Under the pieces are notes generated by a model. That model searched no databases and was not told where the DNA came from. It worked only from the letters and a program-made list of their open reading frames with translations. Below, piece by piece: positions 49,497-60,163 of a stretch of DNA of 64,000 nt; within the stretch, counting starts at the first letter, position 1, and each line of letters starts with the position of its first letter. The translations under genes were made by a program, and so were the position numbers. The stretch comes from Methylomonas koyamae (lineage in GTDB: Bacteria > Pseudomonadota > Gammaproteobacteria > Methylococcales > Methylomonadaceae), in NCBI RefSeq assembly GCF_019669905.1, contig NZ_AP019777.1, positions 3,410,001 to 3,474,000 of the forward strand, in the 5' to 3' direction.

Positions 49497-49548
49497 CCAT
49501 CAACCCTGGCAATGCCGACCGCTCGCCTGCCGATGGCGCTTGGTTAAG

Positions 49549-49738
49549 CCGTTCGCCCCAAGGCGCGCTCTCAGCGTTATACACATCTCTGTTTAATACC
49601 CGTCATTCAGGCAGGGATTGCCGGAATCCAAGCTGCACGGATAGCTTGAGGCGACCATCCATGGCACTGGATGCCCGCGTCCTGCGGGCATGACGGCACT
49701 TGTGTATAACGATGAGCGGCGCGCTCGGGGCGAACGGT
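49549..49738. repeat. MITE-like inverted-repeat element, 190 bp
   Basis: Arms of about 40 bp (49549-49588 and 49699-49738) are imperfect inverted copies: CCGTTCGCCCC and GGGGCGAACGG outermost, GTTATACACA and TGTGTATAAC inside. The centre CGTCATTCAGGCAGGGATTG ... GCGGGCATGACGGC resembles the centre of the 11099-11275 element. The gap 49497-49761 contains nothing else. Confidence 0.65.
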
Positions 49739-49761
49739 ATTTGATGGCTGGGTTAATAGTT

Positions 49762-51192
49762 CTAGAGTCTGCCCGCAACCACATCCGCTACCATAGAACC
49801 AAGCCTGCTCAACGCGTTCTCCAATCGGTCGTTCCAGGGCACCGCACAACTCAAGCGAATGAAATTGCCGTACTTCCGTTGCGTAGCGGAGAACAACGGG
49901 CCGGGCGCGATAATGACGTTTTCCCGACTGGCACGACGGTGCAACTCCATGGCATCGACGCCGTTCGGCAACTCCACCCATAGGGCAAAGCCGCCTTCGG
50001 GCTGGGTGACGCGGGTGCCTTCCGGAAAATATTGGCTGACGGCCTTGACCGTCAGCGCGATATTGCGGGCGTATTCCTGGCGCACATGGCGCAGGTAACG
50101 GTCGTAACCGCCCTGCTCCAACATATGCGCGACGATCAACTGGTTCAGCGTCGGCACGGCCTGGTGTTTCATATATTTCAGATTTTCCACCCGCGCCATA
50201 TAGCGACCAGGCACCAACCAGCCGACTCGCAAGCCGGGCGATAAGGTCTTAGCGAAGGAATTGCAATATAGCACCTGACCTTGCCGGCTCCAGGCCTTAC
50301 ACACCGCCGGCCGGCACAGGCCAAATCCCAGGTCGCCGTAAACATCGTCTTCGATCAGCGGAATTTCATGCCGCTCCAGCAATTCCACCAAGGCCTGCTT
50401 GCGCTCGTCGCTCATGCACGAACCCAGCGGGTTATTGTAATTGGAGACGATCAAACAGGCTTTGATCGGCCATTGTTCGATAGCCATTTGTAGCGCATCC
50501 AACGACAAACCGTCGCGGGGATGCGTGGGAATCTCCAGCGCTTCCATGCCGCAAGACTCGATGACCTGCAACAGCCCGTAAAAAGTCGGAGATTCGATCG
50601 CTATCAGGTCGCCGGGCTCGCAGACGGCCATTAGGGCCAATCGCACCGCCTCGCGAGCGCCATGGGTGACGACGATATCTTCCGGGCTGTCTGCACACTG
50701 CAGTTCCACCATGCGCTTGGCGATTTGCCGACGCAATTCCTGATTGCCGAGCAATTCGTCGGCATCGAAACAACGCTTACCATAACTGCGCGACACCTTA
50801 CCGGTCGCTTGCTGCAAGGCGTGGGCCGGCAAGAAATCGGCATGCGGCACCGACGAGCCCAGATTGATCTGATACGGGTCCTTGGCCGCGCGCAGGATTT
50901 GCCGAGTCAGCGATTGCCCGGTGACCTTGGCCGGCACGACCGGCGCATCGGACATTTCCGGTTCCACCATCGCTTGCGGGCGAAAACCGCTGACATAGTA
51001 GCCCGATCTGGGCCGGGCCTGGATGCGGCCGGCGTCTTCCAGCAAACGATAGGCTTCCAGCGCGGTAGCGATACTGACATGCAATTGCCGGCTCAGCTTT
51101 CTGACGCCGGGCAGCTTTTCGCCGGGGTTGTAGACACCTTGTTCGATATGGGCAATCACCGTTTCCGCGACGGTTTCGTATAAATGTTTCAT
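49762..51192 (-). CDS. MocR-type transcriptional regulator (GntR-aminotransferase fusion)
   Basis: 476 residues from ATG 51192. GntR winged helix at about 3-70 (IEQGVYNPGEKLPGVRKLSRQLHVSIATALEAYRLL) followed by a class I aminotransferase-like domain with PLP-site features (SNYNNPLGSCMSDER, EDDVYGDLGF, Lys in NSFAKTLSPGLRVGW). Such proteins regulate metabolic genes using PLP-linked ligands. It lies downstream of the Nit1C genes in the same direction, separated by 122 bp from the flavoprotein gene, so it might control them; not proven. Confidence 0.9.
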   Translation of the reverse strand: MKHLYETVAETVIAHIEQGVYNPGEKLPGVRKLSRQLHVSIATALEAYRLLEDAGRIQARPRSGYYVSGFRPQAMVEPEMSDAPVVPAKVTGQSLTRQILRAAKDPYQINLGSSVPHADFLPAHALQQATGKVSRSYGKRCFDADELLGNQELRRQIAKRMVELQCADSPEDIVVTHGAREAVRLALMAVCEPGDLIAIESPTFYGLLQVIESCGMEALEIPTHPRDGLSLDALQMAIEQWPIKACLIVSNYNNPLGSCMSDERKQALVELLERHEIPLIEDDVYGDLGFGLCRPAVCKAWSRQGQVLYCNSFAKTLSPGLRVGWLVPGRYMARVENLKYMKHQAVPTLNQLIVAHMLEQGGYDRYLRHVRQEYARNIALTVKAVSQYFPEGTRVTQPEGGFALWVELPNGVDAMELHRRASRENVIIAPGPLFSATQRKYGNFIRLSCAVPWNDRLENALSRLGSMVADVVAGRL

Positions 51193-51314
51193 GCGCCGGT
51201 CCAAATTAATCCGCCAATTGTTACCTGGCCGTGGTTAGGTCGGGTAACGTCATTTTGACCCAGGCCAGCTCCGAATTGAATCGTCAGCCAAACAGCGGCC
51301 AAATGCTAGGCGCC

Positions 51315-52580
51315 TTATGCCATATCCTTGACCGCCAACCGGCCTTCGATTATCCCTGCCAGATACTGCGCGTCGTCGGCTATGCCCAAAAACCGTCCCG
51401 AACCCCAGGTATGCAGCCAAGGCAAGCCGATAAAATACAGGCCGTCGACGTTGGAGATGCCGCGATCGAATTGCGGAAAACCGCGGCCATCGAAGGCCGG
51501 CAATTCTATCCAGCGGTAATTCGGTCTGAAGCCGATCGCCCAGACGATGCTGGTGATGTTTTCCCGGTCGGCGTCGATGGCTGTCGGATCGAATTCAGGC
51601 TGCCAGACTTTACGGAACGGCGGCTCGACTGGGGCGTCGATATTGTGGGCGGCAATGTAGCTGTCGATGTCGTTGCGGATGCTGACATAGACCTCGTCGG
51701 CATCGTCCAGGTTTTTGGTCAGATCCGGTAGAAACTCCAATTTGCTGCCGCTGATATTGACCATGCTGCCGTAGAGTTTGACGCCTTCCAGTGCGAATTT
51801 GCGCAGATCGATTTCGTGGCCGCCGCCGCGGCCGGTCAGATAATGGTTGGTCTTGTGCTTGGCGGCATCGCCCAACGGATGCTTGTCTATCGTCAGATCG
51901 TAGAAGCCTAAGTCGTACAACCATTCGGTGGTTTCGCGGCCGCGATACATGCGCGGCGAGCGCGGCGCACTGCCGACGGCCAGATGCACCTTGCGGCCGG
52001 CCAGATGCAGGTCTTCCATCAATTGGACGCCGGATTGGCCGGAGCCGACCACCAGCACTTCGCCATCGGGCAATTGATCCGGGTTGCGATAATCGACCGA
52101 GTGCAGTTGGGTAATGTGTTTGGGCAAGCTATGGGCGTAATCGGGCACGATGGGTATGTCGTAACCGCCGGTCGCGACTACCACGTGGTCCGCCGTAAAC
52201 TCGCCGTTGCTGGTAACGACATGCAGCACGCTATTTTTGCCCCGCCACACCCGATTCACCGACACACCTTCCATGATCGGCGGATTCACTTTTTTGGCGA
52301 AGGCTTCGACGTATTCGACGATTTCGTGTTTCAGCATGAAGCCTTGCGGATCGTCGCCCTGGTATGGAAAGTCCGGCAACCGGCATTGCCAGTTGGGCGT
52401 AACCAGGCAAAAGCTGTCCCAACGGTCGTGGCGCCAAGAATGGCCGATGCGGTTTTTCTCGAAGACGACGTGGTTGATGCCATGTTTTTGCAGGTAATAA
52501 CTGACCGACAAACCGGCTTGGCCGCCACCGACGACAATAACTTCGTAGTGCAGATGGGTGTTTTCGCGTTTTTCTTTCAT
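51315..52580 (-). CDS. MSMEG_0569-family flavin oxidoreductase (Nit1C)
   Basis: 421-residue FAD-dependent monooxygenase-like protein. FAD site VIVVGGGQAGLSVSYYL at residues about 14-30, NADPH site VLVVGSGQSGVQLMEDL at about 175, and the C-terminal GLYFIGLPWLHTWGSGRFLGI. It is the last enzyme gene of the Nit1C set; its substrate is unknown, but in cyanide-using Pseudomonas the equivalent gene belongs to the required cluster. Confidence 0.9.
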   Translation of the reverse strand: MKEKRENTHLHYEVIVVGGGQAGLSVSYYLQKHGINHVVFEKNRIGHSWRHDRWDSFCLVTPNWQCRLPDFPYQGDDPQGFMLKHEIVEYVEAFAKKVNPPIMEGVSVNRVWRGKNSVLHVVTSNGEFTADHVVVATGGYDIPIVPDYAHSLPKHITQLHSVDYRNPDQLPDGEVLVVGSGQSGVQLMEDLHLAGRKVHLAVGSAPRSPRMYRGRETTEWLYDLGFYDLTIDKHPLGDAAKHKTNHYLTGRGGGHEIDLRKFALEGVKLYGSMVNISGSKLEFLPDLTKNLDDADEVYVSIRNDIDSYIAAHNIDAPVEPPFRKVWQPEFDPTAIDADRENITSIVWAIGFRPNYRWIELPAFDGRGFPQFDRGISNVDGLYFIGLPWLHTWGSGRFLGIADDAQYLAGIIEGRLAVKDMA

Positions 52581-52740
52581 GGCTTCCTCTGTTTCTGGTG
52601 GTTGTTTTTATGCCCAATCGACACCGGGCTCGTTGAATGGCGTTTTTACCCGAACTTCGACCGGCTCAGCCCGAACGGAATACCGCTGATAAAACGAGAC
52701 GGGTTGACAAGCCTCAAGCGCATCGCGTCAGGCCCAGGAT

Positions 52741-53028
52741 TTATTCGATAAATTCGATTACGGTGACGGTCGGCGTTTGCTGTTCCCAAAACCGCATCGC
52801 GTCGGCTTCGATTTGCGCTAACTGATCCAACGCACCGGAACAGGCGTAGCCATACTTGTGCCGCACCCGCTCGCTAGCGATGTTCAGGGCCTCTCGGCTA
52901 CGGCCGACAAAGTCGTCCAACGCATAACTCCGGCCGGGTTGAAAATAGTCCTTGATCACCAGCGACGGCGAATAGCACAGGCTTTCGCTGCTATCGGGCC
53001 AGCGGATTTTGAAATGCATTTCAGGCAT
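52741..53028 (-). CDS. MSMEG_0570-family nitrogen starvation protein (Nit1C)
   Basis: Small 95-residue protein, MPEMHFKIRWPDSSESLCYSPS..., with the segment GRSYALDDFVGRSREALNIASERVRHKYGYACSGA, matching the MSMEG_0570 family that accompanies nitrilase clusters. No catalytic motif is visible. ATG 53028 lies inside the 3' end of the glycosyltransferase gene (8-bp overlap); a longer open frame upstream is antisense-like and unsupported. Confidence 0.88.
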   Translation of the reverse strand: MPEMHFKIRWPDSSESLCYSPSLVIKDYFQPGRSYALDDFVGRSREALNIASERVRHKYGYACSGALDQLAQIEADAMRFWEQQTPTVTVIEFIE

Positions 53029-54196
53029 GGGCGTTTCCTTGGGTTGCGAGTAACGAACGGTAATGGTTTGAATGGGTGTGTGCCGAACGCTGCCAGGAAT
53101 ACTCGGCGGCCAATCGCTTGGCGATGGCGGACAGGCGCGACCGGGGAAAGTTTTCGGCGGCGGCCAGCATCGCACCGGCGATCGAGTCGATCCGTTCCGG
53201 GTCGCACCAGACGCCGTCGTCCCGCCGTAGATAGTCGGTAAACGGCGGCCGATCCGAAACCACGACCGGCGTGCCGGAGGCGATGGCTTCCAAAACCGCC
53301 AAGCCGAAGCCCTCGGTCAGCGACGGAAATACCAGCGCGTCGGCTAAGCGATACAAAGCCGGCAGATCGGCGTCGGGCAACGGGCCGGTGACTAGCAGCG
53401 CCTGGCCGGGGCCGTCTGCGATGCTACTGGCGGCCCGTTCGGCTGCGAACCGGCGACGATAGTCGTTGTGGTCGAGCAGGCTGGCGCCGCCGGCAATCAC
53501 CAATTGCGCGTCCGGGCGTTGCCTGAGCACTTGCCTAAAAGCCTGAAAAATCCTCAGCGTGTTCTTGCGCCGCTCCACGCCGCCGACCGCCAGAAACACC
53601 GGACCGACGCGGTTCAGGCCCAGCAAATGGCGCAAGGCTTCGTCGTTGCGCCCCATTTTGGGGTTGAAACGGTCGATATCGACGCCGTTGTTGATCAATT
53701 GCGCGGCGATGCCGTAGTCCTGGAGTAAACTGACTTGCCAGAGCCGGCTGACGCACAGCACATAATCGGCGGCGAGAAACGACGCGGTTTGCCATCGGTT
53801 GAGCCGGTCGTCGTCGAAGCGGTCCAAGTGATGCACGGTGCGAATGAACGTCCGGATCATGCCGGCTTGCTTCAACTCCGCCAGCGCACAACCGCTGATC
53901 GCGTCCTGGGCATGGTAAATGTCGTAGTCTTCCTGGCTGCTGCGGGCGAAATAATCAACATAGGCCTGGATGCGTTGGCCGACGGTGGCAACCAAATCGC
54001 CAACCAAGCCCATTAGCGGTATCAGCACGGTTTTGCAGCGCACCGGACGGAAGAAGTCTTTGCCGGCTTCGGCGGGGGCAATCAAGGTCACATCGTAGCC
54101 CAGGTCATGTAGGGCTTCGGCCAGTTGCAGGGCGTGGACCACTCCGCCGCGCGGATTGACGGAATGGGTCAGCATGGCGATTTTGAGTGTTGACAT
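53021..54196 (-). CDS. MSMEG_0565-family glycosyltransferase (Nit1C)
   Basis: 391-residue GT-B fold, GT4-like. N-terminal MLTHSVNPRGGVVHALQLAEAL, donor-site features VGGVERRKNTLRIFQAF and the E-x7-E pair EGFGLAVLEAI (about 295). A glycosyltransferase in a nitrilase cluster hints that a sugar-linked small molecule is made. The start overlaps the end of the AIR-synthase-like gene, whose last codons pass through a CCCTCTCCC/GGGAGAGGG repeat; the GAGGGAGA ahead of this ATG belongs to that repeat. Confidence 0.92.
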   Translation of the reverse strand: MSTLKIAMLTHSVNPRGGVVHALQLAEALHDLGYDVTLIAPAEAGKDFFRPVRCKTVLIPLMGLVGDLVATVGQRIQAYVDYFARSSQEDYDIYHAQDAISGCALAELKQAGMIRTFIRTVHHLDRFDDDRLNRWQTASFLAADYVLCVSRLWQVSLLQDYGIAAQLINNGVDIDRFNPKMGRNDEALRHLLGLNRVGPVFLAVGGVERRKNTLRIFQAFRQVLRQRPDAQLVIAGGASLLDHNDYRRRFAAERAASSIADGPGQALLVTGPLPDADLPALYRLADALVFPSLTEGFGLAVLEAIASGTPVVVSDRPPFTDYLRRDDGVWCDPERIDSIAGAMLAAAENFPRSRLSAIAKRLAAEYSWQRSAHTHSNHYRSLLATQGNAHA

Positions 54197-55290
54197 AGGG
54201 TTATCTCCCTCACCCCATCCCCTCTCCCTGAGGGAGAGGGGCTTTCAGTTATGATTGGGCCGCAGCCGGTCAAGGGCTGTTCGTTCAAATCCCACAGCGC
54301 TTGTTGTTCATCGCCAAGGGCGAGGCGTAACTGGCGACTGGAGTCGGTCGTGCCGATCACCGCGCAAGCGATGCCGCGTTGCGTGAAGCGTTCGATCACC
54401 GCCGCGCTATTCTCGCTGTCGACACTGAGCACGAAGCCGAAGCTAGGAAAGCAACTCAGCCATCTTTCCAAGACTATGCCTGCCGGGCGCGGTATCGCTT
54501 GGATATCCACGGTGCCGCCCAAGTCCGAGCATTCCAACAGCATTAATATGGTGCCGACGACGCCGGCATTGCTGATGTCCTTGGCGGCAGCGCAAAGGCC
54601 GGTTTCGGCCAGGGTCGGCAGGATTTCCAAGTCTTGGCGCAGGCGCTCGGGCGGCGCGCCGGTGCTGGCGTCCCACCATAAATAGGGTTCGCGGAAGTGG
54701 CCGCGCAAATCGATGGCCGCCAGCAGTTGTTGGCCTGGTTTTGCGGCGAAGCTGCTGAGCAGTTTTTGGGCGCGGCCCAAAATCGCCACCGACAGTTGCG
54801 GGCGGTCGTTACGCAGGTTGCTATGGCCGCCGACCACCGGCACGCCGTAAACTTGCGAGGCGGTCGCTAGGCCTTCCAGTATCGGCTTGGCTTGACCAGC
54901 ACCGTCGCTCCAGAGCGCATCGACCACCGCGATTGGCCGGCCGCCCATCGCGTAAATGTCGCTGACGTTGACCATCACCCCGCAGTAGCCGGCAAACCAG
55001 GGCTGGCTGGCGACGAAGTCGTTCAAATAGCCTTCGCTTGCCAGCAGCAGGTAGCCGTCGCCGTCAGGGATGGCGGCGCAGTCGTCGCCGACCGGTACAT
55101 CGTTCCCACGCTGCGCGCGGGAATGCATACTGAACCGCTCCGCGGTTCGGGACGCTGGAGCGTCCGTGGCGGGGTTCCAACGCGGAGCGTGGGAACCATA
55201 GAGTCTTCCCATCACCTCGGCGATGTCGCGCTTATGCGCTAGCCCCAAGCCTTGCCGGATGCTCAGCGTCAATTCGGCGAGCGCACTCAT
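54169..55290 (-). CDS. Sll0787-family AIR synthase-like protein (Nit1C), with inserted repeats
   Basis: 373 residues, PurM/SelD superfamily. ATP-binding motif VPVGDDCAAIPDGDGYLLLASEG at about 65-87, VNVSDIYAMGGRPIAVVDAL, and GGHSNLRNDRPQLSVAILG. Residues about 32-64 (GSHAPRWNPATDAPASRTA and on) are encoded by a GTTCCCACGC/GCGTGGGAAC palindromic repeat and split the helix RLY from VPVGDD; removing them restores the usual family length in frame. The C-terminal SPSPSGRGDGVREI is encoded by another repeat. Whether the protein still works is open. It overlaps the N-acetyltransferase gene by 4 bp. Confidence 0.88.
   Translation of the reverse strand: MSALAELTLSIRQGLGLAHKRDIAEVMGRLYGSHAPRWNPATDAPASRTAERFSMHSRAQRGNDVPVGDDCAAIPDGDGYLLLASEGYLNDFVASQPWFAGYCGVMVNVSDIYAMGGRPIAVVDALWSDGAGQAKPILEGLATASQVYGVPVVGGHSNLRNDRPQLSVAILGRAQKLLSSFAAKPGQQLLAAIDLRGHFREPYLWWDASTGAPPERLRQDLEILPTLAETGLCAAAKDISNAGVVGTILMLLECSDLGGTVDIQAIPRPAGIVLERWLSCFPSFGFVLSVDSENSAAVIERFTQRGIACAVIGTTDSSRQLRLALGDEQQALWDLNEQPLTGCGPIITESPSPSGRGDGVREITLCQHSKSPC
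54203..54242. repeat. CCCTCTCCC/GGGAGAGGG repeat inside the end of the AIRS-like gene
   Basis: CCCCTCTCCCTGAGGGAGAG with a preceding CTCCCTCACCCCAT, same family as 30379-30414. It is translated as the last part of the AIRS-like protein and lies directly before the glycosyltransferase start on the - strand. Confidence 0.75.
55101..55197. repeat. GTTCCCACGC...GCGTGGGAAC repeat inside the AIRS-like gene
   Basis: CGTTCCCACGCTGCGCGCGG and GCGGAGCGTGGGAACC are outer halves; inner AACCGCTCCGCGGTT and GACGCTGGAGCGTC are further palindromes. Ninety-seven to ninety-nine bases preserve the reading frame. Confidence 0.85.
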
Positions 55291-55829
55291 GCCGCGATCC
55301 GGGAGGTGGCGACGAAACCGGTGGCGCCGTCGGCATAGGGCGGATAGCTATCCAGGTCTGCCTGCATCAAATAATGCGACCGGCCATGCGCCTCGATTTC
55401 CTTCAGCGAGCGCCAATGCAGGCGACGGAACAGCAACTGGTTGCGGGCCTGCACCTGGGCCAAAAAGGTGTTGCAGCCCTGGGCGTGGGCGCTGGTCACC
55501 GCCAGCTTAATCAAGGCCGCGCCGAGACTGCCTTGCTTGCGGTAGTCCCGATCCACCGCCAAGCGCGAGCCCCACCAGACGCCGGGCTTTTCCTGGTGGA
55601 TGCGCACGGTGCCGACCACCCGGTCCGGCATGCCGGCCAGGCAGGCGATGGCGACGATGGGCGTGGCGACTTTATCGATATCGTCCAGATCGTCGCCGGC
55701 GAAGATGCCTTGCTCCTCGCAGAACACCGCCTGGCGCAGTTCCCGCATCTGCTTGCGCTCCCAATCCTGGGTGACGAACTTGATCAAATATTCGTTGGCG
55801 AAATAGGGTTTAAAGTTATCGGTCCACAT
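55287..55829 (-). CDS. MSMEG_0567/Sll0786-family N-acetyltransferase (Nit1C)
   Basis: 180-residue GNAT protein: LRQAVFCEEQGIF at about 30, RVVGTVRIHQEKPGVWWGSRLAVDRDYRKQGSLGAALIKLAV (acetyl-CoA loop) and FRRLHWRSLKEIEAHGRSH. It presumably acetylates a cluster metabolite. The start is 1 bp from the end of the radical SAM gene. Confidence 0.92.
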   Translation of the reverse strand: MWTDNFKPYFANEYLIKFVTQDWERKQMRELRQAVFCEEQGIFAGDDLDDIDKVATPIVAIACLAGMPDRVVGTVRIHQEKPGVWWGSRLAVDRDYRKQGSLGAALIKLAVTSAHAQGCNTFLAQVQARNQLLFRRLHWRSLKEIEAHGRSHYLMQADLDSYPPYADGATGFVATSRIAA

Positions 55830-55830
55830 C

Positions 55831-56943
55831 TCACACCTCGTAGCTGGCCAGTGCCGAGCAGGCGCCGCATTTGGCGCAGCCGGCCTTGATGTCTTGGGAT
55901 AACAGCCGGGCTTGTTTGAGCATCGCGCCGAGCGTCGGCAGGATTTGCGCCATGAAGGCCGGCGTCGGTGCCGGATGGTTTTCCAGCGGCGTGCCGGTGA
56001 TCGGCACGAAGGGCACGACGAAGGGGTAAACGCCTTTGGCTATCAAGTGTTGCGAGACTTCCAGGATCGCCTCCGCCGTATCGCCCAGCCCCGCCAGGAT
56101 GTAGGTGCTGACCTGGCCGCGGCCGAATACCGCCACCGCAGCGTCGAAGGCGTCCATGTAACGCGCCATAGTCAGGCCGGCTTTGCCAGGCATGATGCGG
56201 GCGCGCACTTCCGGCGTCACCGCTTCCAAATGCATGCCCAAACTATCGATGCCGCAAGCCTTCATGCGCTGGAACCAGAGGTCTTCATCCGGCGGCTCGC
56301 ATTGGCCCTGAATCGGCAGATCGACGGCGGCTTTGACGGCCTGGGCGCTTTCGCAGAGGATGGCCGCGCCCCGGTCGGTCAGATTGGGCGTGCCGGTGGT
56401 CATCACCATGTGCTTGACGCCGTCCAGCTCGACGGCGGCCTTGGCGACCTCCGCCAGTTGCTTAGGCGTCTTGCGCAAAATGGTATTGCCGGCTGCCAGC
56501 GATAGTCCTATGGCGCAGAACTGGCAGGCGGTCTTGCGGTTGCCGTAGCGGATACAGGATTGCAGCAGCGTGGTCGCCAGCACGTCCGACGAATGCAGCG
56601 TGGCGATTTGCGAATAAGCTATGCCGTCCTCGGTTTTTAAATCGTAAAAGCGCGGCTGCCGCGGAAATTCGATATGGCTGACCACGACGCCGTCGCGCCG
56701 AATTTCGCTGATACCGTGCTGGTCCGGCTTGCCGGCGACGAAGGGCGAGTCGCAGGCCGAGGCGGTGGCGATTGGGATCATCACCGTTCGCCCGGCGAAA
56801 TTGACGGCCTTGTGATCGGAAGGCCCGGCGCCGCCGCGCCGGCCTGTGACGCCAACTTCGCTGTCTTCCAGGCGTAATCCTAAGGATTGCAGATCGAGCA
56901 GCAAAGCAGCGGTGCCGGCGTCAGCCAAGGCTAATGGATTCAT
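55831..56943 (-). CDS. MSMEG_0568-family radical SAM enzyme (Nit1C)
   Basis: 370 residues from ATG 56943, preceded by CAGGAGATCGCG. The iron-sulphur ligands appear as an unusual CX9CX2C set ([18 protein letters not shown]) at about 150-165, with a further C-terminal CxxCxxC ([12 protein letters not shown]). GGDT-like SAM motif is [11 protein letters not shown]. Related to biotin-synthase-like enzymes by arrangement, substrate unknown. The start lies inside the end of the nitrilase gene (23-bp overlap). Confidence 0.92.
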
Positions 56944-57928
56944 CGCGATCTCCTGTTGGGACGGTGGGGGAAACATGGCTGGACGGATTGGCCGCCGCAT
57001 CGCTGAACATCGGCACGGCCGGCCTGTCGGCTATACGCAGGCTGAGCAGTTCCGGGCGGGCGTAATGGCCGACCGAATCCATCATGCGCTTGCGCTTAGT
57101 GATCAAATTCATGTCCAGGTCGGCGATCAGGATGCCTTCGCCTGCGCGCAAGGGTTCGACGACGTGCTGGCCTTCCGGCGAGACGATGGCGGTGCAACAG
57201 CCGCCGCGCAGGGCTTTTTGCAAGTTGGGATCGGTGGTCACTGCGTCGATTTGTTCGTCCGAGAGCCAGCCGGTGGCGTTGACCACGAAGCAGCCGGATT
57301 CCAGGGCGTGGTGGCGTATCGTCACTTCAATTTGCTCGGCGAAGATAGGGCCGACTAATGAGCCCGGAAACTGGCTGCAGTGGATTTGTTCGTGCTGGGC
57401 CATTAATGCATAACGGGCCAGTGGGTTGTAATGTTCCCAGCAGGCCAGCGCGCCGATGCGGCCGATGCCGGTTTCGACGACTTTGAGACCCGCGCCGTCG
57501 CCTTGACCCCAGACCATGCGTTCGTGGTAGGTCGGGGTGATCTTGCGGCGTTTCAACGCCAGACGGCCGGTTTCGTCGAAAATCAATTGGGTGTTATAGA
57601 GACTGCCATGGTCGCGTTCGTTGACGCCCAACACCACGACCACACCATGAGCCTTGGCCTGCGCCGCGACCGCGTCGGTGACCGGGCCAGGCACCGTCGG
57701 CGCTAAATCGTAAAGCTTCAAGTGTTCGCGTCCCTGGGCGACCGGCGGCAGCACGAAGGAAAAGTAGGGGTAATAAGGCACGAAGGTTTCCGGGAACACC
57801 ACGATTTGCGCCCCCTTGGCGGCGGCGTCGCTGATGGCCTGGCAAACCTTGTCGGCGGTGGCAGTGGCGGATTCGAACACCGGCGCGATCTGTACCGCCG
57901 CCGCTCTGACGATATTGGGATGGGTCAC
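56921..57928 (-). CDS. Nit6803-family nitrilase (Nit1C)
   Basis: Hydrolyses a nitrile to an acid plus ammonia. Catalytic triad: Glu in [15 protein letters not shown], Lys in [14 protein letters not shown] and Cys163 in [16 protein letters not shown], matching the Synechocystis Nit6803 group. I choose GTG 57928 (335 residues), preceded by CAGGAGAACTCATT at correct spacing; an in-frame ATG 36 bp upstream lies before this ribosome site. Cluster members in Pseudomonas are needed for growth on cyanide, which makes ammonia release from a cyanide adduct a sound inference. Confidence 0.95.
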
Positions 57929-58035
57929 AATGAGTTCTCCTGTGGCAGTGCGTAGGGTACACACCGCGTACCTTCCGCAGCGTTACCGTTGGAAGGCGCA
58001 AAAAGGCACGCAATGCGTACCCGGCTAATTTGGAC

Positions 58036-58518
58036 TTACAAAGTCCAGGTATCCAGGATGAAGGCGTTGTCGCGCTGGTGCAGCAACACAATATCTAACA
58101 CGTCTAATGGGTTGATAGGACGAATGCCCGGCAGCAGGCTGGGTTCGCCGTGGCCGTACAAGGCTTGCAGCGCAAAGCGGCAGGCGTAGACCTTGCCGCC
58201 CTCCTCGATGAATTTGGCGATCTGGTTGGCGTAATTCTGGTGCCCCGGAAATGACTCGTCGCCCAGGCGCGGAAAGCCGCGTTGCAGACCCAGCGTCACG
58301 CCGGGGCCGTACAACAAGATCGAGGTTTCGAAGCCTTTGCGTTGCAGGCGAGTCGCTTGCAACAAGTTGACGAAGCCTATCGAGCCCTCGAAGGCGACGG
58401 TGTGGAATTTGACCAGGGCTTTCTGGCCCGGTTCTGCTTTGACGTCTTCGAAGACTTTTTCTTCGAAATCGACAAAAAAGTCGCCTTTTTGGTGGGCTGG
58501 TGCGGTAACGGCTGGCAT
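58036..58518 (-). CDS. MSMEG_0572/Sll0783-family nitrogen starvation protein (Nit1C)
   Basis: 160 residues, first gene of the cluster. DsrE/TusD-like appearance ([44 protein letters not shown]), with a Cys in [13 protein letters not shown]. Sll0783 responds to nitrogen starvation in Synechocystis. Ribosome site CAGGAG precedes the ATG. It lies 108 bp before the nitrilase. Confidence 0.93.
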
Positions 58519-58822
58519 CTAAATCTCCTGATGATCGGTAAAAAACCCGGTGCCGGCGAGCGACGCCGGGAGCAACAATGACTGTCAATCCTGTGTTCGA
58601 TCGACGGGAGATACTTTACTGACGCGTATAAAAGCGGAACAGATTCAGTCAGTCGTATAATTTTTCAGTACAGATACACCTGAAACGGATCTGTATGGTG
58701 CCAAAACGCGCCTAACTGTTACGTTTGAATTTTGCCCGGTCCGATAGCGTTCGAAACAACCAGGCCGGAGCTGGCTGCGCGGTTTGTGCGATGATGGCCG
58801 GACCGGCTTCACTTTACCGACC
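58519..58822. promoter_or_regulatory. Divergent intergenic region between Nit1C and peptide transporter
   Basis: 304 bp without a gene, so both promoters should lie here. The central portion (about 58615-58680) is AT-rich (ATACTTTACT, CGTATAATTTTTCAG). I searched by eye for a sigma-54 type GG-N10-GC element on the Nit1C side and did not find one. Confidence 0.4.
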
Positions 58823-60163
58823 ATGACGCAAAAACGCTTTTTCGGCCATCCGCCCGGCCTGTTCGTGCTGTTTTTCACCGAGATGTGGGAACGCTTTTCC
58901 TATTACGGCATGCGCGCCCTGTTGGTGCTGTACATGACCGAACACCTGCTAAAGGCGGCGCAAACCGGCCGGGAGGTATACGGCCTGCCGCTGCTGAAGC
59001 GGGTTTTGCAAGCGGTTTTCGGCCCGCTCGGCGAGCAAGCGTTGGCGTCGCAGATTTACGGCCTGTACACCGGCTTGGTCTATCTGACGCCGCTGTTCGG
59101 CGGCCTGCTGGCCGACCGGGTGCTGGGCCGGCGCCGCGCCGTGCTGTTGGGCGGCAGCCTGATGGCAGTCGGCCATTTCTTGATGGCCGACGAAGCCTGG
59201 TTTCTGCCGGCGCTGTTGTTTTTGATCGTCGGTAACGGCTGCTTCAAACCCAATATTTCCGGCCAGGTCGGCGACTTGTATCCGCCTGGCGATCCGCGCC
59301 GCGACGGTGCATTCACCATTTTTTACATGGGCGTCAATCTCGGCGCATTTTTTTCGCCGCTGGTATGCGGCACGTTGGGCCAGCGCTATGGCTGGCATTA
59401 CGGCTTTGCCGCCGCCGGCGTCGGCATGCTGCTGGGCTTGCTGGTTTACGGCTGGGGCCGGCGTTATTTGCCGGCGGCCGAGCCGCCGCAGCCGCGGGTT
59501 GGCCAGGCCGAAGCCTTATCCGGCGAGGATTACCGAGCCATCGCCGCACTCGGCACTATCGCGCTGCTGAACGTGATGTTCTGGGCCGTTTACGAACAGC
59601 AAGGCAACACGCTGCAACTGTTTGCCGAACACGAGACCGATTGGCACCTGTTCGGTTGGGAAATGCCGTCCACCTGGTTCCAGTCCTTGAATCCGGCGTT
59701 TATTTTTATGCTGGCGCCGCTGATCGACGCCCACGCCCGCCGGCAAAGCCGACGCGGCCGCCAGGCGTCCAGCATCGGCAAAATGGCCTTGGGTGCGGTG
59801 TTGTTGGGCGCTTCGTTTTTCGTATTGATTTTCGCGGTCGGCGCTACCGGCCAACCCGGCAAAATCAGTTTTCTGTGGCTGGCCTTGTGCACGCTGGTGT
59901 ACACGCTGGGCGAACTGTACCTGTCACCGGTCGGTTTGTCGCTGGTCAGCAAAATCGCGCCGGCCGGCCTGATCGGGCTTTTGATGGGAATTTGGTTTCT
60001 GTCGTCGTTCTTCGGCAACTTGCTGTCGGGTTACATCGGCAGCTTTTACCAGACCATGCCCAGACCGGCGTTTTTTCTACTGTTGGCCGGCTTGGGCATC
60101 GGCACCGGTCTGGCGATACTGGCGGTGAAACCGCTACTGCGCAAGGCCTTGGGGCCGGTTTGA
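58823..60163 (+). CDS. POT-family proton-dependent oligopeptide transporter
   Basis: 446-residue major-facilitator protein with the PTR2 signature: HPPGLFVLFFTEMWERFSYYGM (the ExxER proton-coupling motif), GGLLADRVLGRRRAVLLGG, and GNGCFKPNISGQVGDLYP. Around twelve to fourteen helices. Start ATG 58823; thirteen upstream codons in frame have no ribosome site. It would import di- and tripeptides. Confidence 0.93.
   Translation: MTQKRFFGHPPGLFVLFFTEMWERFSYYGMRALLVLYMTEHLLKAAQTGREVYGLPLLKRVLQAVFGPLGEQALASQIYGLYTGLVYLTPLFGGLLADRVLGRRRAVLLGGSLMAVGHFLMADEAWFLPALLFLIVGNGCFKPNISGQVGDLYPPGDPRRDGAFTIFYMGVNLGAFFSPLVCGTLGQRYGWHYGFAAAGVGMLLGLLVYGWGRRYLPAAEPPQPRVGQAEALSGEDYRAIAALGTIALLNVMFWAVYEQQGNTLQLFAEHETDWHLFGWEMPSTWFQSLNPAFIFMLAPLIDAHARRQSRRGRQASSIGKMALGAVLLGASFFVLIFAVGATGQPGKISFLWLALCTLVYTLGELYLSPVGLSLVSKIAPAGLIGLLMGIWFLSSFFGNLLSGYIGSFYQTMPRPAFFLLLAGLGIGTGLAILAVKPLLRKALGPV

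What the first reader, a model, noticed from the sequence alone, without database searches (positions are those of the whole stretch)
51315..58518. Complete Nit1C nitrilase cluster in a probable methylotroph
Eight linked - strand genes (Sll0783-like, nitrilase, radical SAM, GNAT, AIRS-like, glycosyltransferase, MSMEG_0570-like, flavoprotein) follow the order known from the Nit6803/MSMEG_0565-0572 families. In Pseudomonas fluorescens NCIMB 11764 a related cluster is required for growth on cyanide as nitrogen source. The enzyme set (glycosyl-, acetyl-transfer, radical chemistry) suggests that the natural substrate is a small built molecule rather than free nitrile. The product is undescribed as far as I know.
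Basis: partly seen in the sequence, partly recalled or inferred. Interest (0 to 1): 0.72.

Follow-up and report, generated by a model that had tools for sequence, protein, structure and literature searches.

The report
Methanotroph nitrilase operon with RNA leader
A methane-eating bacterium carries a complete copy of a known eight-gene nitrilase operon, tied elsewhere to growth on cyanide and to nitrogen starvation, and here it sits on a small genomic island with its own regulator gene and a conserved stop signal in the RNA leader, which gives a handle on what the operon senses and makes.

Summary
All eight minus-strand genes pass the curated NCBIfam cut-offs for Nit1C, in the proteobacterial order nitB-C-D-E-F-(GT)-G-H known since 2005. 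The host is a Methylomonas-type methanotroph. The cluster itself is a new member of a known kind.

New here is the control. (1) A MocR regulator (49762-51204) belongs to the system: a MocR hit is linked to 82 of 84 sampled Nit1C loci, and two close relatives lack MocR plus Nit1C between conserved flanks. (2) Methanotroph nitB promoters carry ACAGAT/ATCTGT half-sites at fixed spacing; the other sampled loci, mostly Burkholderiales, have another MocR subfamily, other repeats and often a sigma-54-like promoter. (3) A terminator hairpin with compensatory changes lies about 30 bases before nitB in 16 of 17 methanotroph leaders and scored strongly only at nitB in 201 family genomes.

Most likely NitC hydrolyses a hydroxynitrile to ammonia while the other enzymes make or recycle an unknown small molecule during nitrogen limitation. 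The glycosyltransferase is optional (46 of 84 loci). The product remains unknown.

The parts
49497..58822 (.). Island present or absent as a unit: MocR + Nit1C + operator + leader
   Evidence: Flanks align at 84-86% up to 49496 and again from 58823 with 35 bp between them in two close relatives that lack nitB, L199 and L200
49762..51204 (-). MocR-type regulator (GntR HTH + aminotransferase-like domain), PdxR-like but below that model's cut-off
   Evidence: PF00392 and PF00155; NF052282 267 vs cut-off 320; linked to the cluster in methanotrophs; only 2 full-length alignments in the genome
51315..52580 (-). nitH, MSMEG_0569 flavin-dependent oxidoreductase
   Evidence: TIGR04046 642.1 bits, cut-off 498.35
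52741..53028 (-). nitG, MSMEG_0570 family (no Pfam family); invariant C18 and C63
   Evidence: TIGR04042 128.8 bits, cut-off 79.85; Cys in 80 of 80 aligned rows
53021..54196 (-). GT4 glycosyltransferase, MSMEG_0565 family (accessory, not core)
   Evidence: TIGR04047 485.8 bits, cut-off 259.85; found in 46 of 84 loci
54169..55290 (-). nitF, sll0787 AIR synthase-like (PurM superfamily) ATP enzyme
   Evidence: TIGR04049 454.5 bits, cut-off 321.3; profile matches ThiL, PurL, HypE, SelD structures
55287..55829 (-). nitE, MSMEG_0567/Sll0786 GNAT acetyltransferase
   Evidence: TIGR04045 238.9 bits, cut-off 68.45
55831..56943 (-). nitD, MSMEG_0568 radical SAM protein; Cx9Cx2C (149/159/162) and C-terminal Cx2Cx2C (375/378/381)
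   Evidence: TIGR04043 577.4 bits, cut-off 303.7; first motif in 85 of 85 aligned rows, second in the at-least-97% columns
56921..57964 (-). nitC, Nit6803-family nitrilase, triad E59-K141-C175
   Evidence: TIGR04048 565.7 bits, cut-off 502.6; closest solved structure 3wuy, E 1.7e-149; triad in 84 of 84 aligned rows
58036..58518 (-). nitB, MSMEG_0572/Sll0783 protein, weakly DsrE-like, invariant C113
   Evidence: TIGR04044 278.2 bits, cut-off 109.85; DsrE E 0.0027, below cut-off; C113 in 84 of 84 aligned rows
58540..58570 (-). Leader helix P2 plus T-run: intrinsic terminator about 30 nt before the nitB ATG
   Evidence: Stem 58570-58546, T-run 58545-58540; 4 of 9 pairs with changes on both sides. 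In the full-leader fold of the window the outer part of the 5' arm pairs with the Shine-Dalgarno region and only the inner P2 pairs remain
58583..58605 (-). Leader hairpin P1 at the predicted 5' end of the transcript
   Evidence: In the minimum-energy fold of 16 of 16 terminator-bearing leaders, four of them with a bulge; column pairing 84%
58611..58618 (-). Putative -10 element TAAAGTAT
   Evidence: Conserved in alignment A5; the simple sigma-70 scan found no match here
58639..58720 (-). Operator-like array: half-sites at about 58720, 58694, 58675 and 58644 (two forward, two inverted)
   Evidence: All four by strict pattern in 13 of 16 methanotroph promoters, nearly fixed spacing; inner pair unique in the genome

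Best explanation
The locus is a complete Nit1C operon carried with its own MocR regulator on a 9.3 kb island. SHOWN by sequence: the eight families, intact nitrilase triad and radical-SAM cysteines, the linked MocR, the four-half-site array, the leader terminator, and the empty site in close relatives. INFERRED: MocR binds the half-sites and, like other MocR proteins, senses a PLP-reactive amine or PLP itself; the promoter fires under nitrogen limitation or nitrile/cyanide stress; the terminator keeps basal expression low until read-through is allowed. INFERRED: NitC hydrolyses a small 2-hydroxynitrile (in a methylotroph the obvious one is glycolonitrile, from HCN plus formaldehyde) to ammonia and a hydroxy acid; NitB, D, E, F, G and H make, activate or recycle a small N-acylated, radical-modified metabolite needed in that state, with the glycosyltransferase as an optional decoration.
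For: Families; literature on NitC acting on cyanohydrins in Pseudomonas (passages); conserved active-site residues; core order conserved in the sampled Proteobacteria; MocR hit linked to 82 of 84 loci, 79 of these within 1 kb, against 2 full-length MocR alignments in the whole genome; two MocR subfamilies with two different repeat sets; inner operator unique in the genome; terminator with compensatory changes strong only at nitB in 201 genomes; empty site; methanotroph clusters form one clade.
Against: No expression or biochemical data for any methanotroph Nit1C turned up in my searches. The leader of the window alone does not fold better than shuffles (z -0.70), and its best fold pairs part of P2 with the Shine-Dalgarno region. 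The P1 helix has no pair with changes on both sides and is broken by columns in four or five rows at several pairs. One methanotroph locus (L030) lacks the terminator. At the loose threshold of the scan, 18 of 73 non-methanotroph upstream regions also gave a terminator-like hit. The sigma-70 scan found no promoter. The glycolonitrile idea is general chemistry, untested. A Rhodococcus cluster lacks the Nit6803 nitrilase, so hydroxynitrile hydrolysis may not be the common core.
Confidence: 0.55

Rival explanations
1. Plain cyanide/nitrile assimilation: the operon exists to free ammonia from cyanide-derived nitriles, and the other genes only support NitC (supply of carbonyl compounds, redox, protection).
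For: NitC is reported as essential for cyanide assimilation in P. pseudoalcaligenes, and the cluster is induced by cyanide-containing residue and partly by 3-cyanoalanine (passages).
Against: A nitrilase alone suffices for hydrolysis, yet radical SAM, GNAT, AIRS and flavoprotein genes are kept; mycobacterial and cyanobacterial mutants have redox phenotypes without cyanide (passages); the Rhodococcus plasmid cluster has no Nit6803 nitrilase.
Confidence: 0.3
2. Redox adaptation: the operon makes a small molecule or activity that raises the NADPH/NADP ratio and peroxide tolerance in nitrogen-starved cells; nitrile use is a side activity.
For: M. smegmatis gpr (MSMEG_0565-0572) gives peroxide resistance and raises NADPH/NADP (passages); the Synechocystis sll0783 mutant fails to raise NADPH/NADP (passages); flavoprotein and weakly DsrE-like proteins in the core.
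Against: The actinobacterial version differs in its hydrolases; the mycobacterial authors could not assign the phenotype to single genes; no direct evidence in Methylomonas.
Confidence: 0.25
3. The nitB leader hairpin is a constitutive terminator that yields a short RNA or merely lowers read-through, and is not regulated.
For: No conserved leader peptide seen by eye, linker poorly conserved, no Rfam match in the leader, only about 70 nt before the end of the T-run.
Against: Strict position and compensatory changes show selection; an unregulated terminator in front of an eight-gene operon would be costly (inference).
Confidence: 0.35
4. The adjacent MocR is an unrelated neighbour.
For: It can lie upstream or downstream and on either strand, and 5.7 kb away in L029.
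Against: 82 of 84 loci, 2 full-length copies in the genome, inside the same island, found with the cluster in 14 of 14 further methanotroph loci.
Confidence: 0.08

Closest known systems
Nit1C of Burkholderia and Rubrivivax (Podar et al. 2005, PMC1199592, passages seen)
   Same: Same core genes, same order, glycosyltransferase between AIRS and ORF6 genes, flavoprotein last in the same orientation
   Different: Sampled Burkholderiales loci have an EhuR-like MocR, TGATYGCA repeats and often a sigma-54-like promoter; the window has a PdxR-like MocR, ACAGAT half-sites and a leader terminator
nitABCDEFGH of Pseudomonas (PMC11049912, passages seen)
   Same: nitB to nitH, described there with matching enzyme classes
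   Different: Pseudomonas has the Fis-family sigma-54 activator NitA and no glycosyltransferase among its listed genes; the window has a glycosyltransferase and a MocR
gpr cluster MSMEG_0565-0572 of M. smegmatis (PMC6039565, passages seen)
   Same: Same families for 0572, 0570, 0569, 0568, 0567 and 0565, going by the NCBIfam family names; I did not compare the M. smegmatis proteins themselves
   Different: gpr is under GlnR. In a Rhodococcus plasmid cluster of the same type GNAT and AIRS are fused and two other carbon-nitrogen hydrolases stand in place of the Nit6803 nitrilase
sll0783-sll0787 of Synechocystis 6803 (PMC3901256, passages seen)
   Same: Nitrogen-starvation operon with NitB, nitrilase, radical SAM, acyltransferase
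   Different: Flavoprotein gene at the other end on the opposite strand

Membership tests
Nit1C cluster | All seven core families present and linked | tested here: met
   all above curated cut-offs
Nit1C cluster | Subfamily-1 (Nit6803) nitrilase with intact E-K-C triad | tested here: met
Nit1C cluster | Order ORF1-nitrilase-rSAM-GNAT-AIRS-(GT)-ORF6-flavoprotein, proteobacterial type | tested here: met
   against passages; among 84 loci only L055 and L101 depart from the core order, apart from loci cut by contig ends
Nit1C cluster | Needed for growth on cyanide as nitrogen source | not testable with these tools
   Needs a mutant; reported for Pseudomonas (passages)
Pseudomonas-type Nit1C control | Sigma-54 promoter / NitA activator | tested here: not met
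   TGGCAY-N5-TTGC in 0 of 16 methanotroph promoters, 44 of 72 EhuR-type loci; the two neighbours scanned, MocR and POT transporter, are not NitA
MocR regulators | GntR HTH fused to an aminotransferase-like domain | tested here: met
PdxR (NF052282) | Score above the curated cut-off | tested here: not met
   267.1 vs 320
DsrE/DsrF fold, for NitB | Above the Pfam gathering score or a confident profile or structure match | tested here: inconclusive
   PF02635 18.3 vs 22.7; hhalign 48.6% against 20 mixed DsrE/Tus proteins, but 2.3%, 0.3% and 0.1% against the three groups apart, the last two no better than the three controls (0.1-0.4%); PDB 3mc3 E 0.2, ranked below an antibody chain; no fold prediction ran
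Actinobacterial (gpr-type) version | GNAT-AIRS fusion and two non-Nit6803 CN hydrolases, as in Rhodococcus L101 | tested here: not met
   Separate genes and one Nit6803 nitrilase in the window
Known regulatory RNA | Rfam match in the nitB leader | tested here: not met
   No leader match at E up to 1

The most novel reading that the evidence does not exclude
Nit1C is at heart a biosynthetic pathway to a small redox-active amino metabolite (perhaps sulfur-bearing: weakly DsrE-like NitB with an invariant Cys, radical SAM with an extra C-terminal Cys triplet, PurM-superfamily ATP enzyme) that passes through a nitrile; an amine of the pathway is the MocR ligand; and in methanotrophs the nitB leader is a new small RNA switch that gates the operon by attenuation. 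Growth on cyanide would be a by-product.
Probability: 0.17. Interest if true: 0.78.

Novelty: new variant of a known kind. Interest (0 to 1): 0.42.

Why it matters
Nit1C was described in 2005 and is widespread (NitB on 515 plasmid records alone), yet what it makes and senses is unknown as far as my searches show. A dedicated MocR points to a PLP-reactive amine as the signal, and a leader terminator gives a simple assay (read-through) for finding it, so an old open question becomes testable in a genus that can be grown on methane.

Tried and rejected
Glycosyltransferase as core: rejected, 46 of 84 loci. Sigma-54 control in methanotrophs: rejected, 0 of 16. Leader as a known Rfam RNA: no leader match (the one hit is a sub-threshold antizyme element at 54204-54247, where nitF and the glycosyltransferase gene meet). 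Leader as a general riboswitch: the model's strong hits (58.7-79.1 bits) in 201 family genomes are 15, all directly upstream of nitB; the next is 28.9 bits. Cautions: most of the 15 are, or are near copies of, the rows the model was built from; that search used stricter filters and scored 25 candidates per genome, so weak matches can be lost; weak matches (E up to 0.1) turned up too, so that 75 of 201 genomes had some match. Leader peptide: looked for by eye only; no conserved start plus stop. Phage carriage of nitB: no match in the phage collection. Greedy ORF calling in the loci was spoilt by antisense ORFs in GC-rich DNA and was replaced by tblastn mapping. MAFFT misplaced P2 in A6; A7 was used. 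A weak TIGR04044 hit in G056 had no Pfam match. Insertion signs at the island ends: no direct repeats; one 37-nt imperfect inverted repeat near the left end.

Structure prediction of NitB and NitG never ran. No fold evidence is claimed.

L101-L104 were picked by me from 60 listed of 515 plasmid records. The DsrE comparison used 20 of the 27 fetched loci.
Full report
WHAT IS THERE. The eight minus-strand ORFs at 51315-58518 exist, and each passes the curated NCBIfam cut-off for its named family: NitB TIGR04044, NitC TIGR04048, NitD TIGR04043, NitE TIGR04045, NitF TIGR04049, glycosyltransferase TIGR04047, NitG TIGR04042, NitH TIGR04046. Start corrections: nitG at 53028, nitD probably at 56943. 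The nitrilase triad E59-K141-C175 is invariant in 84 of 84 aligned rows. The radical SAM protein has a Cx9Cx2C motif invariant in 85 of 85 aligned rows and a C-terminal Cx2Cx2C (positions 375/378/381) in the at-least-97% columns. Rows outside 0.7-1.4 times the window's length were left out of these alignments. The closest solved structure to NitC by sequence is 3wuy.

THE HOST. The window lies in a 5.1 Mb genome with two PF02461 genes. NitB is 98% identical to a Methylomonas fluvii protein, and the nearest named nitrilase loci are Methylomonas and Methylobacter. So it is a gammaproteobacterial methanotroph. TIGR04044 passes its cut-off in 16 of 201 genomes of the family, and in 7 of the 21 same-genus genomes listed in that output, the own one included: a patchy distribution.

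WHAT IS KNOWN. Podar et al. 2005 (PMC1199592, passages) described Nit1C, including the betaproteobacterial form with the glycosyltransferase between AIRS and ORF6, which is the arrangement here. PMC11049912 (passages) summarises that nit1C is needed for cyanide assimilation in Pseudomonas, where NitA is a sigma-54-dependent regulator. PMC8567248 (passages) reports NitC induction by 3-cyanoalanine. PMC6039565 (passages) shows that the mycobacterial version, gpr, confers peroxide resistance and a higher NADPH/NADP ratio under nitrogen starvation, and already calls MSMEG_0572 DsrE-like. PMC3901256 (passages) shows that the sll0783 mutant does not shift toward NADPH. PMC9716671 (passages) treats Nit1C as cyanide assimilation in an Antarctic cyanobacterium.

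WHICH GENES ARE CORE. I mapped 84 loci (80 nearest nitrilase loci and 4 plasmid loci) by tblastn: NitD 84, NitB 83, NitC 83, NitE 83, NitF 83, NitG 79, NitH 78; some of the lower numbers reflect contig ends. The glycosyltransferase was found in 46, an LnmK-like Pnap_2097 protein in 31, a methylmalonyl-CoA mutase in 22, and an AMP-binding ligase in 2. NCBIfam put one LnmK-like protein and two mutases over their cut-offs; the one ligase scanned was below every cut-off shown and is annotated only as AMP-binding. In a Rhodococcus plasmid GNAT and AIRS are fused, and two other carbon-nitrogen hydrolases stand in place of NitC. The glycosyltransferase is therefore decoration, not core, and acyl-CoA chemistry recurs beside the cluster.

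THE REGULATOR. A MocR protein (GntR HTH plus aminotransferase domain) at 49762-51204 follows nitH. A tblastn hit to one of two MocR queries, of at least 150 bits, is linked to 82 of 84 loci, 79 of them within 1 kb (L029 5.7 kb, L030 1.4 kb and L094 1.9 kb away; misses are a contig edge, L093, and Rhodococcus, L101). I scanned the domains of only four of these proteins. The own genome has only two full-length alignments to the window's MocR. 72 loci carry an EhuR-like type, always upstream of nitB; 10 methanotroph loci carry the PdxR-like type of the window. The three EhuR-like proteins scanned scored 376-410 against a cut-off of 480, so they are relatives, not members.

THE ISLAND. In two relatives with no TIGR04044 match (G011 and G079) the flanking genes are present at 86-90% protein identity and lie side by side: DNA aligns to window 49496 and resumes at 58823, with 35 bp between. 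The missing piece, 9.3 kb, is MocR plus Nit1C plus the leader. Of 14 further methanotroph loci fetched (several are copies of the named loci), all 14 hold the MocR and one (L108) shares the window's flanks; in the others the flank proteins tested were not found, as far as their ends reach (in L117, a copy of L029, the MocR is 5.7 kb off). The 11 methanotroph clusters in a concatenated five-protein FastTree of 77 loci form one clade with support 1.0.

THE OPERATOR. Upstream of nitB, methanotrophs share four half-sites, two AACAGT/ACAGAT forward and two ATCTGT inverted, at nearly constant spacing: all four by strict pattern in 13 of 16 (L023, L106 and L030 vary). The inner pair with its flanking bases occurs once in the genome. 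Cross-check: at least two such half-sites in 14 of 16 PdxR-type promoters and 0 of 72 EhuR-type; TGATYGCA in 1 of 16 and 63 of 72. In 61 dereplicated EhuR-type regions the top 8-mer is in 44, against 6 for the top 8-mer of one shuffle. A sigma-54-like TGGCAY-N5-TTGC is in 44 of 72 EhuR-type regions, mostly 70-120 bp upstream, and 0 of 16 PdxR-type (for the 72, shuffled mean 0.05 and reversed pattern 0). So the same enzymes are linked to MocR proteins of two subfamilies with two sets of repeats. Binding is inferred.

THE LEADER. Between the promoter and nitB lies a short leader with hairpin P1, then a terminator (P2 plus T-run) about 30 nt before the ATG, then a Shine-Dalgarno. It is present in 16 of 17 distinct methanotroph leaders (L030 lacks it). 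In the automatic scan of 93 upstream regions, 36 gave some terminator-like hit: 18 of 20 methanotroph regions (copies included; misses L030 and its copy L119), all at -30 to -32, and 18 of 73 others. Of those 18 others, about ten also lie 32-38 nt before the ATG, mostly with a broken T-run and weaker stems, but L057 is strong; I did not follow them, so an attenuator outside methanotrophs is not excluded. P2 has 96.5% of cells paired and 4 of 9 pairs with changes on both sides; the whole structure beats all 500 shuffles on covariation score, pairing percentage and cells changed on both sides, and exceeds the slid versions, but 28 of 500 shuffles match it on number of double-changed pairs and 123 of 500 on pair types. 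P1 varies on one side only, and four rows re-pair with a bulge. The window leader alone is not more stable than shuffles, and its best fold pairs the outer 5' arm of P2 with the Shine-Dalgarno region. A covariance model found 15 strong hits in 201 genomes, all upstream of nitB in 15 of the 16 genomes with TIGR04044 over cut-off; the next score is 28.9 bits. Most of these sequences, or near copies, built the model, so the informative part is the absence of strong hits elsewhere, under the stricter filters of that search.

NITB, NITF AND NITG. NitB is weakly DsrE-like (Pfam E 0.0027 in the window, 0.00045 in Rhodococcus, both below cut-off; profile comparison 48.6% with 20 mixed DsrE/Tus proteins, but 2.3% or less with each group apart, three controls under 0.5%; PDB 3mc3 E 0.2, just behind an antibody chain). 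This is a lead, not a result. NitF belongs to the PurM superfamily, nearest to ThiL, PurL, HypE and SelD structures. NitG matched nothing credible.

MECHANISM. I commit to an inducible island operon: MocR and the leader gate it, NitC frees ammonia from a small hydroxynitrile, and the remaining enzymes handle an unknown metabolite. In a formaldehyde-producing cell glycolonitrile is the obvious hydroxynitrile (general chemistry, untested). The MocR association suggests an amine signal (general knowledge of MocR proteins, recalled). The rival redox reading has real support from two other phyla and is not excluded.

VERDICT. Cluster: already described kind, complete and intact. Its control in methanotrophs: a new variant that I did not find in print (searches; passages on small RNAs and nit1C in Pseudomonas, PMC6368324, name no leader or riboswitch).

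Noticed in passing
L021 and L023 (Methylomonas fluvii, two scaffolds): Two full Nit1C copies, each with its own MocR and leader terminator, in one strain.
   Followed up: partly
L094:15334-18250, L043:15194-18231: LnmK-like acyltransferase/decarboxylase followed by a methylmalonyl-CoA mutase directly after nitH; LnmK found in 31 and mutase in 22 of 84 loci.
   Followed up: partly
upstream of nitB in L057, L073, L085, L086, L090 and others: Some Paraburkholderia/Burkholderia loci also have a hairpin with an imperfect T-run 32-38 nt before nitB; possibly a related or independent attenuator.
   Followed up: no
plasmid collection: NitB is on 515 plasmid records, 374 of them Klebsiella, 30 Escherichia; only the listing was viewed for these.
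   Followed up: no
upstream of nitB in EhuR-type loci, e.g. L043 about -91: Sigma-54-like promoter in 44 of 72 loci, TGATYGCA repeats in 63 of 72, which suggests joint nitrogen and MocR control.
   Followed up: partly
window 49549-49737: 37-nt imperfect inverted repeat (TGTGTATAACGATGAGCG...) at the left end of the island; similar letters occur upstream of nitB in L028 and L029, perhaps a REP-like element.
   Followed up: no
window 58784-60163: POT-family peptide transporter; the relatives' alignment resumes at 58823, so its true start is probably there and not the TTG at 58784.
   Followed up: partly
L055: Azospirillum cluster with the flavoprotein gene moved between nitD and nitE.
   Followed up: no
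L030:10926-12104 and L066:10947-12074: The stretches I extracted for nitD hold an internal stop; either an extraction error or broken genes.
   Followed up: no
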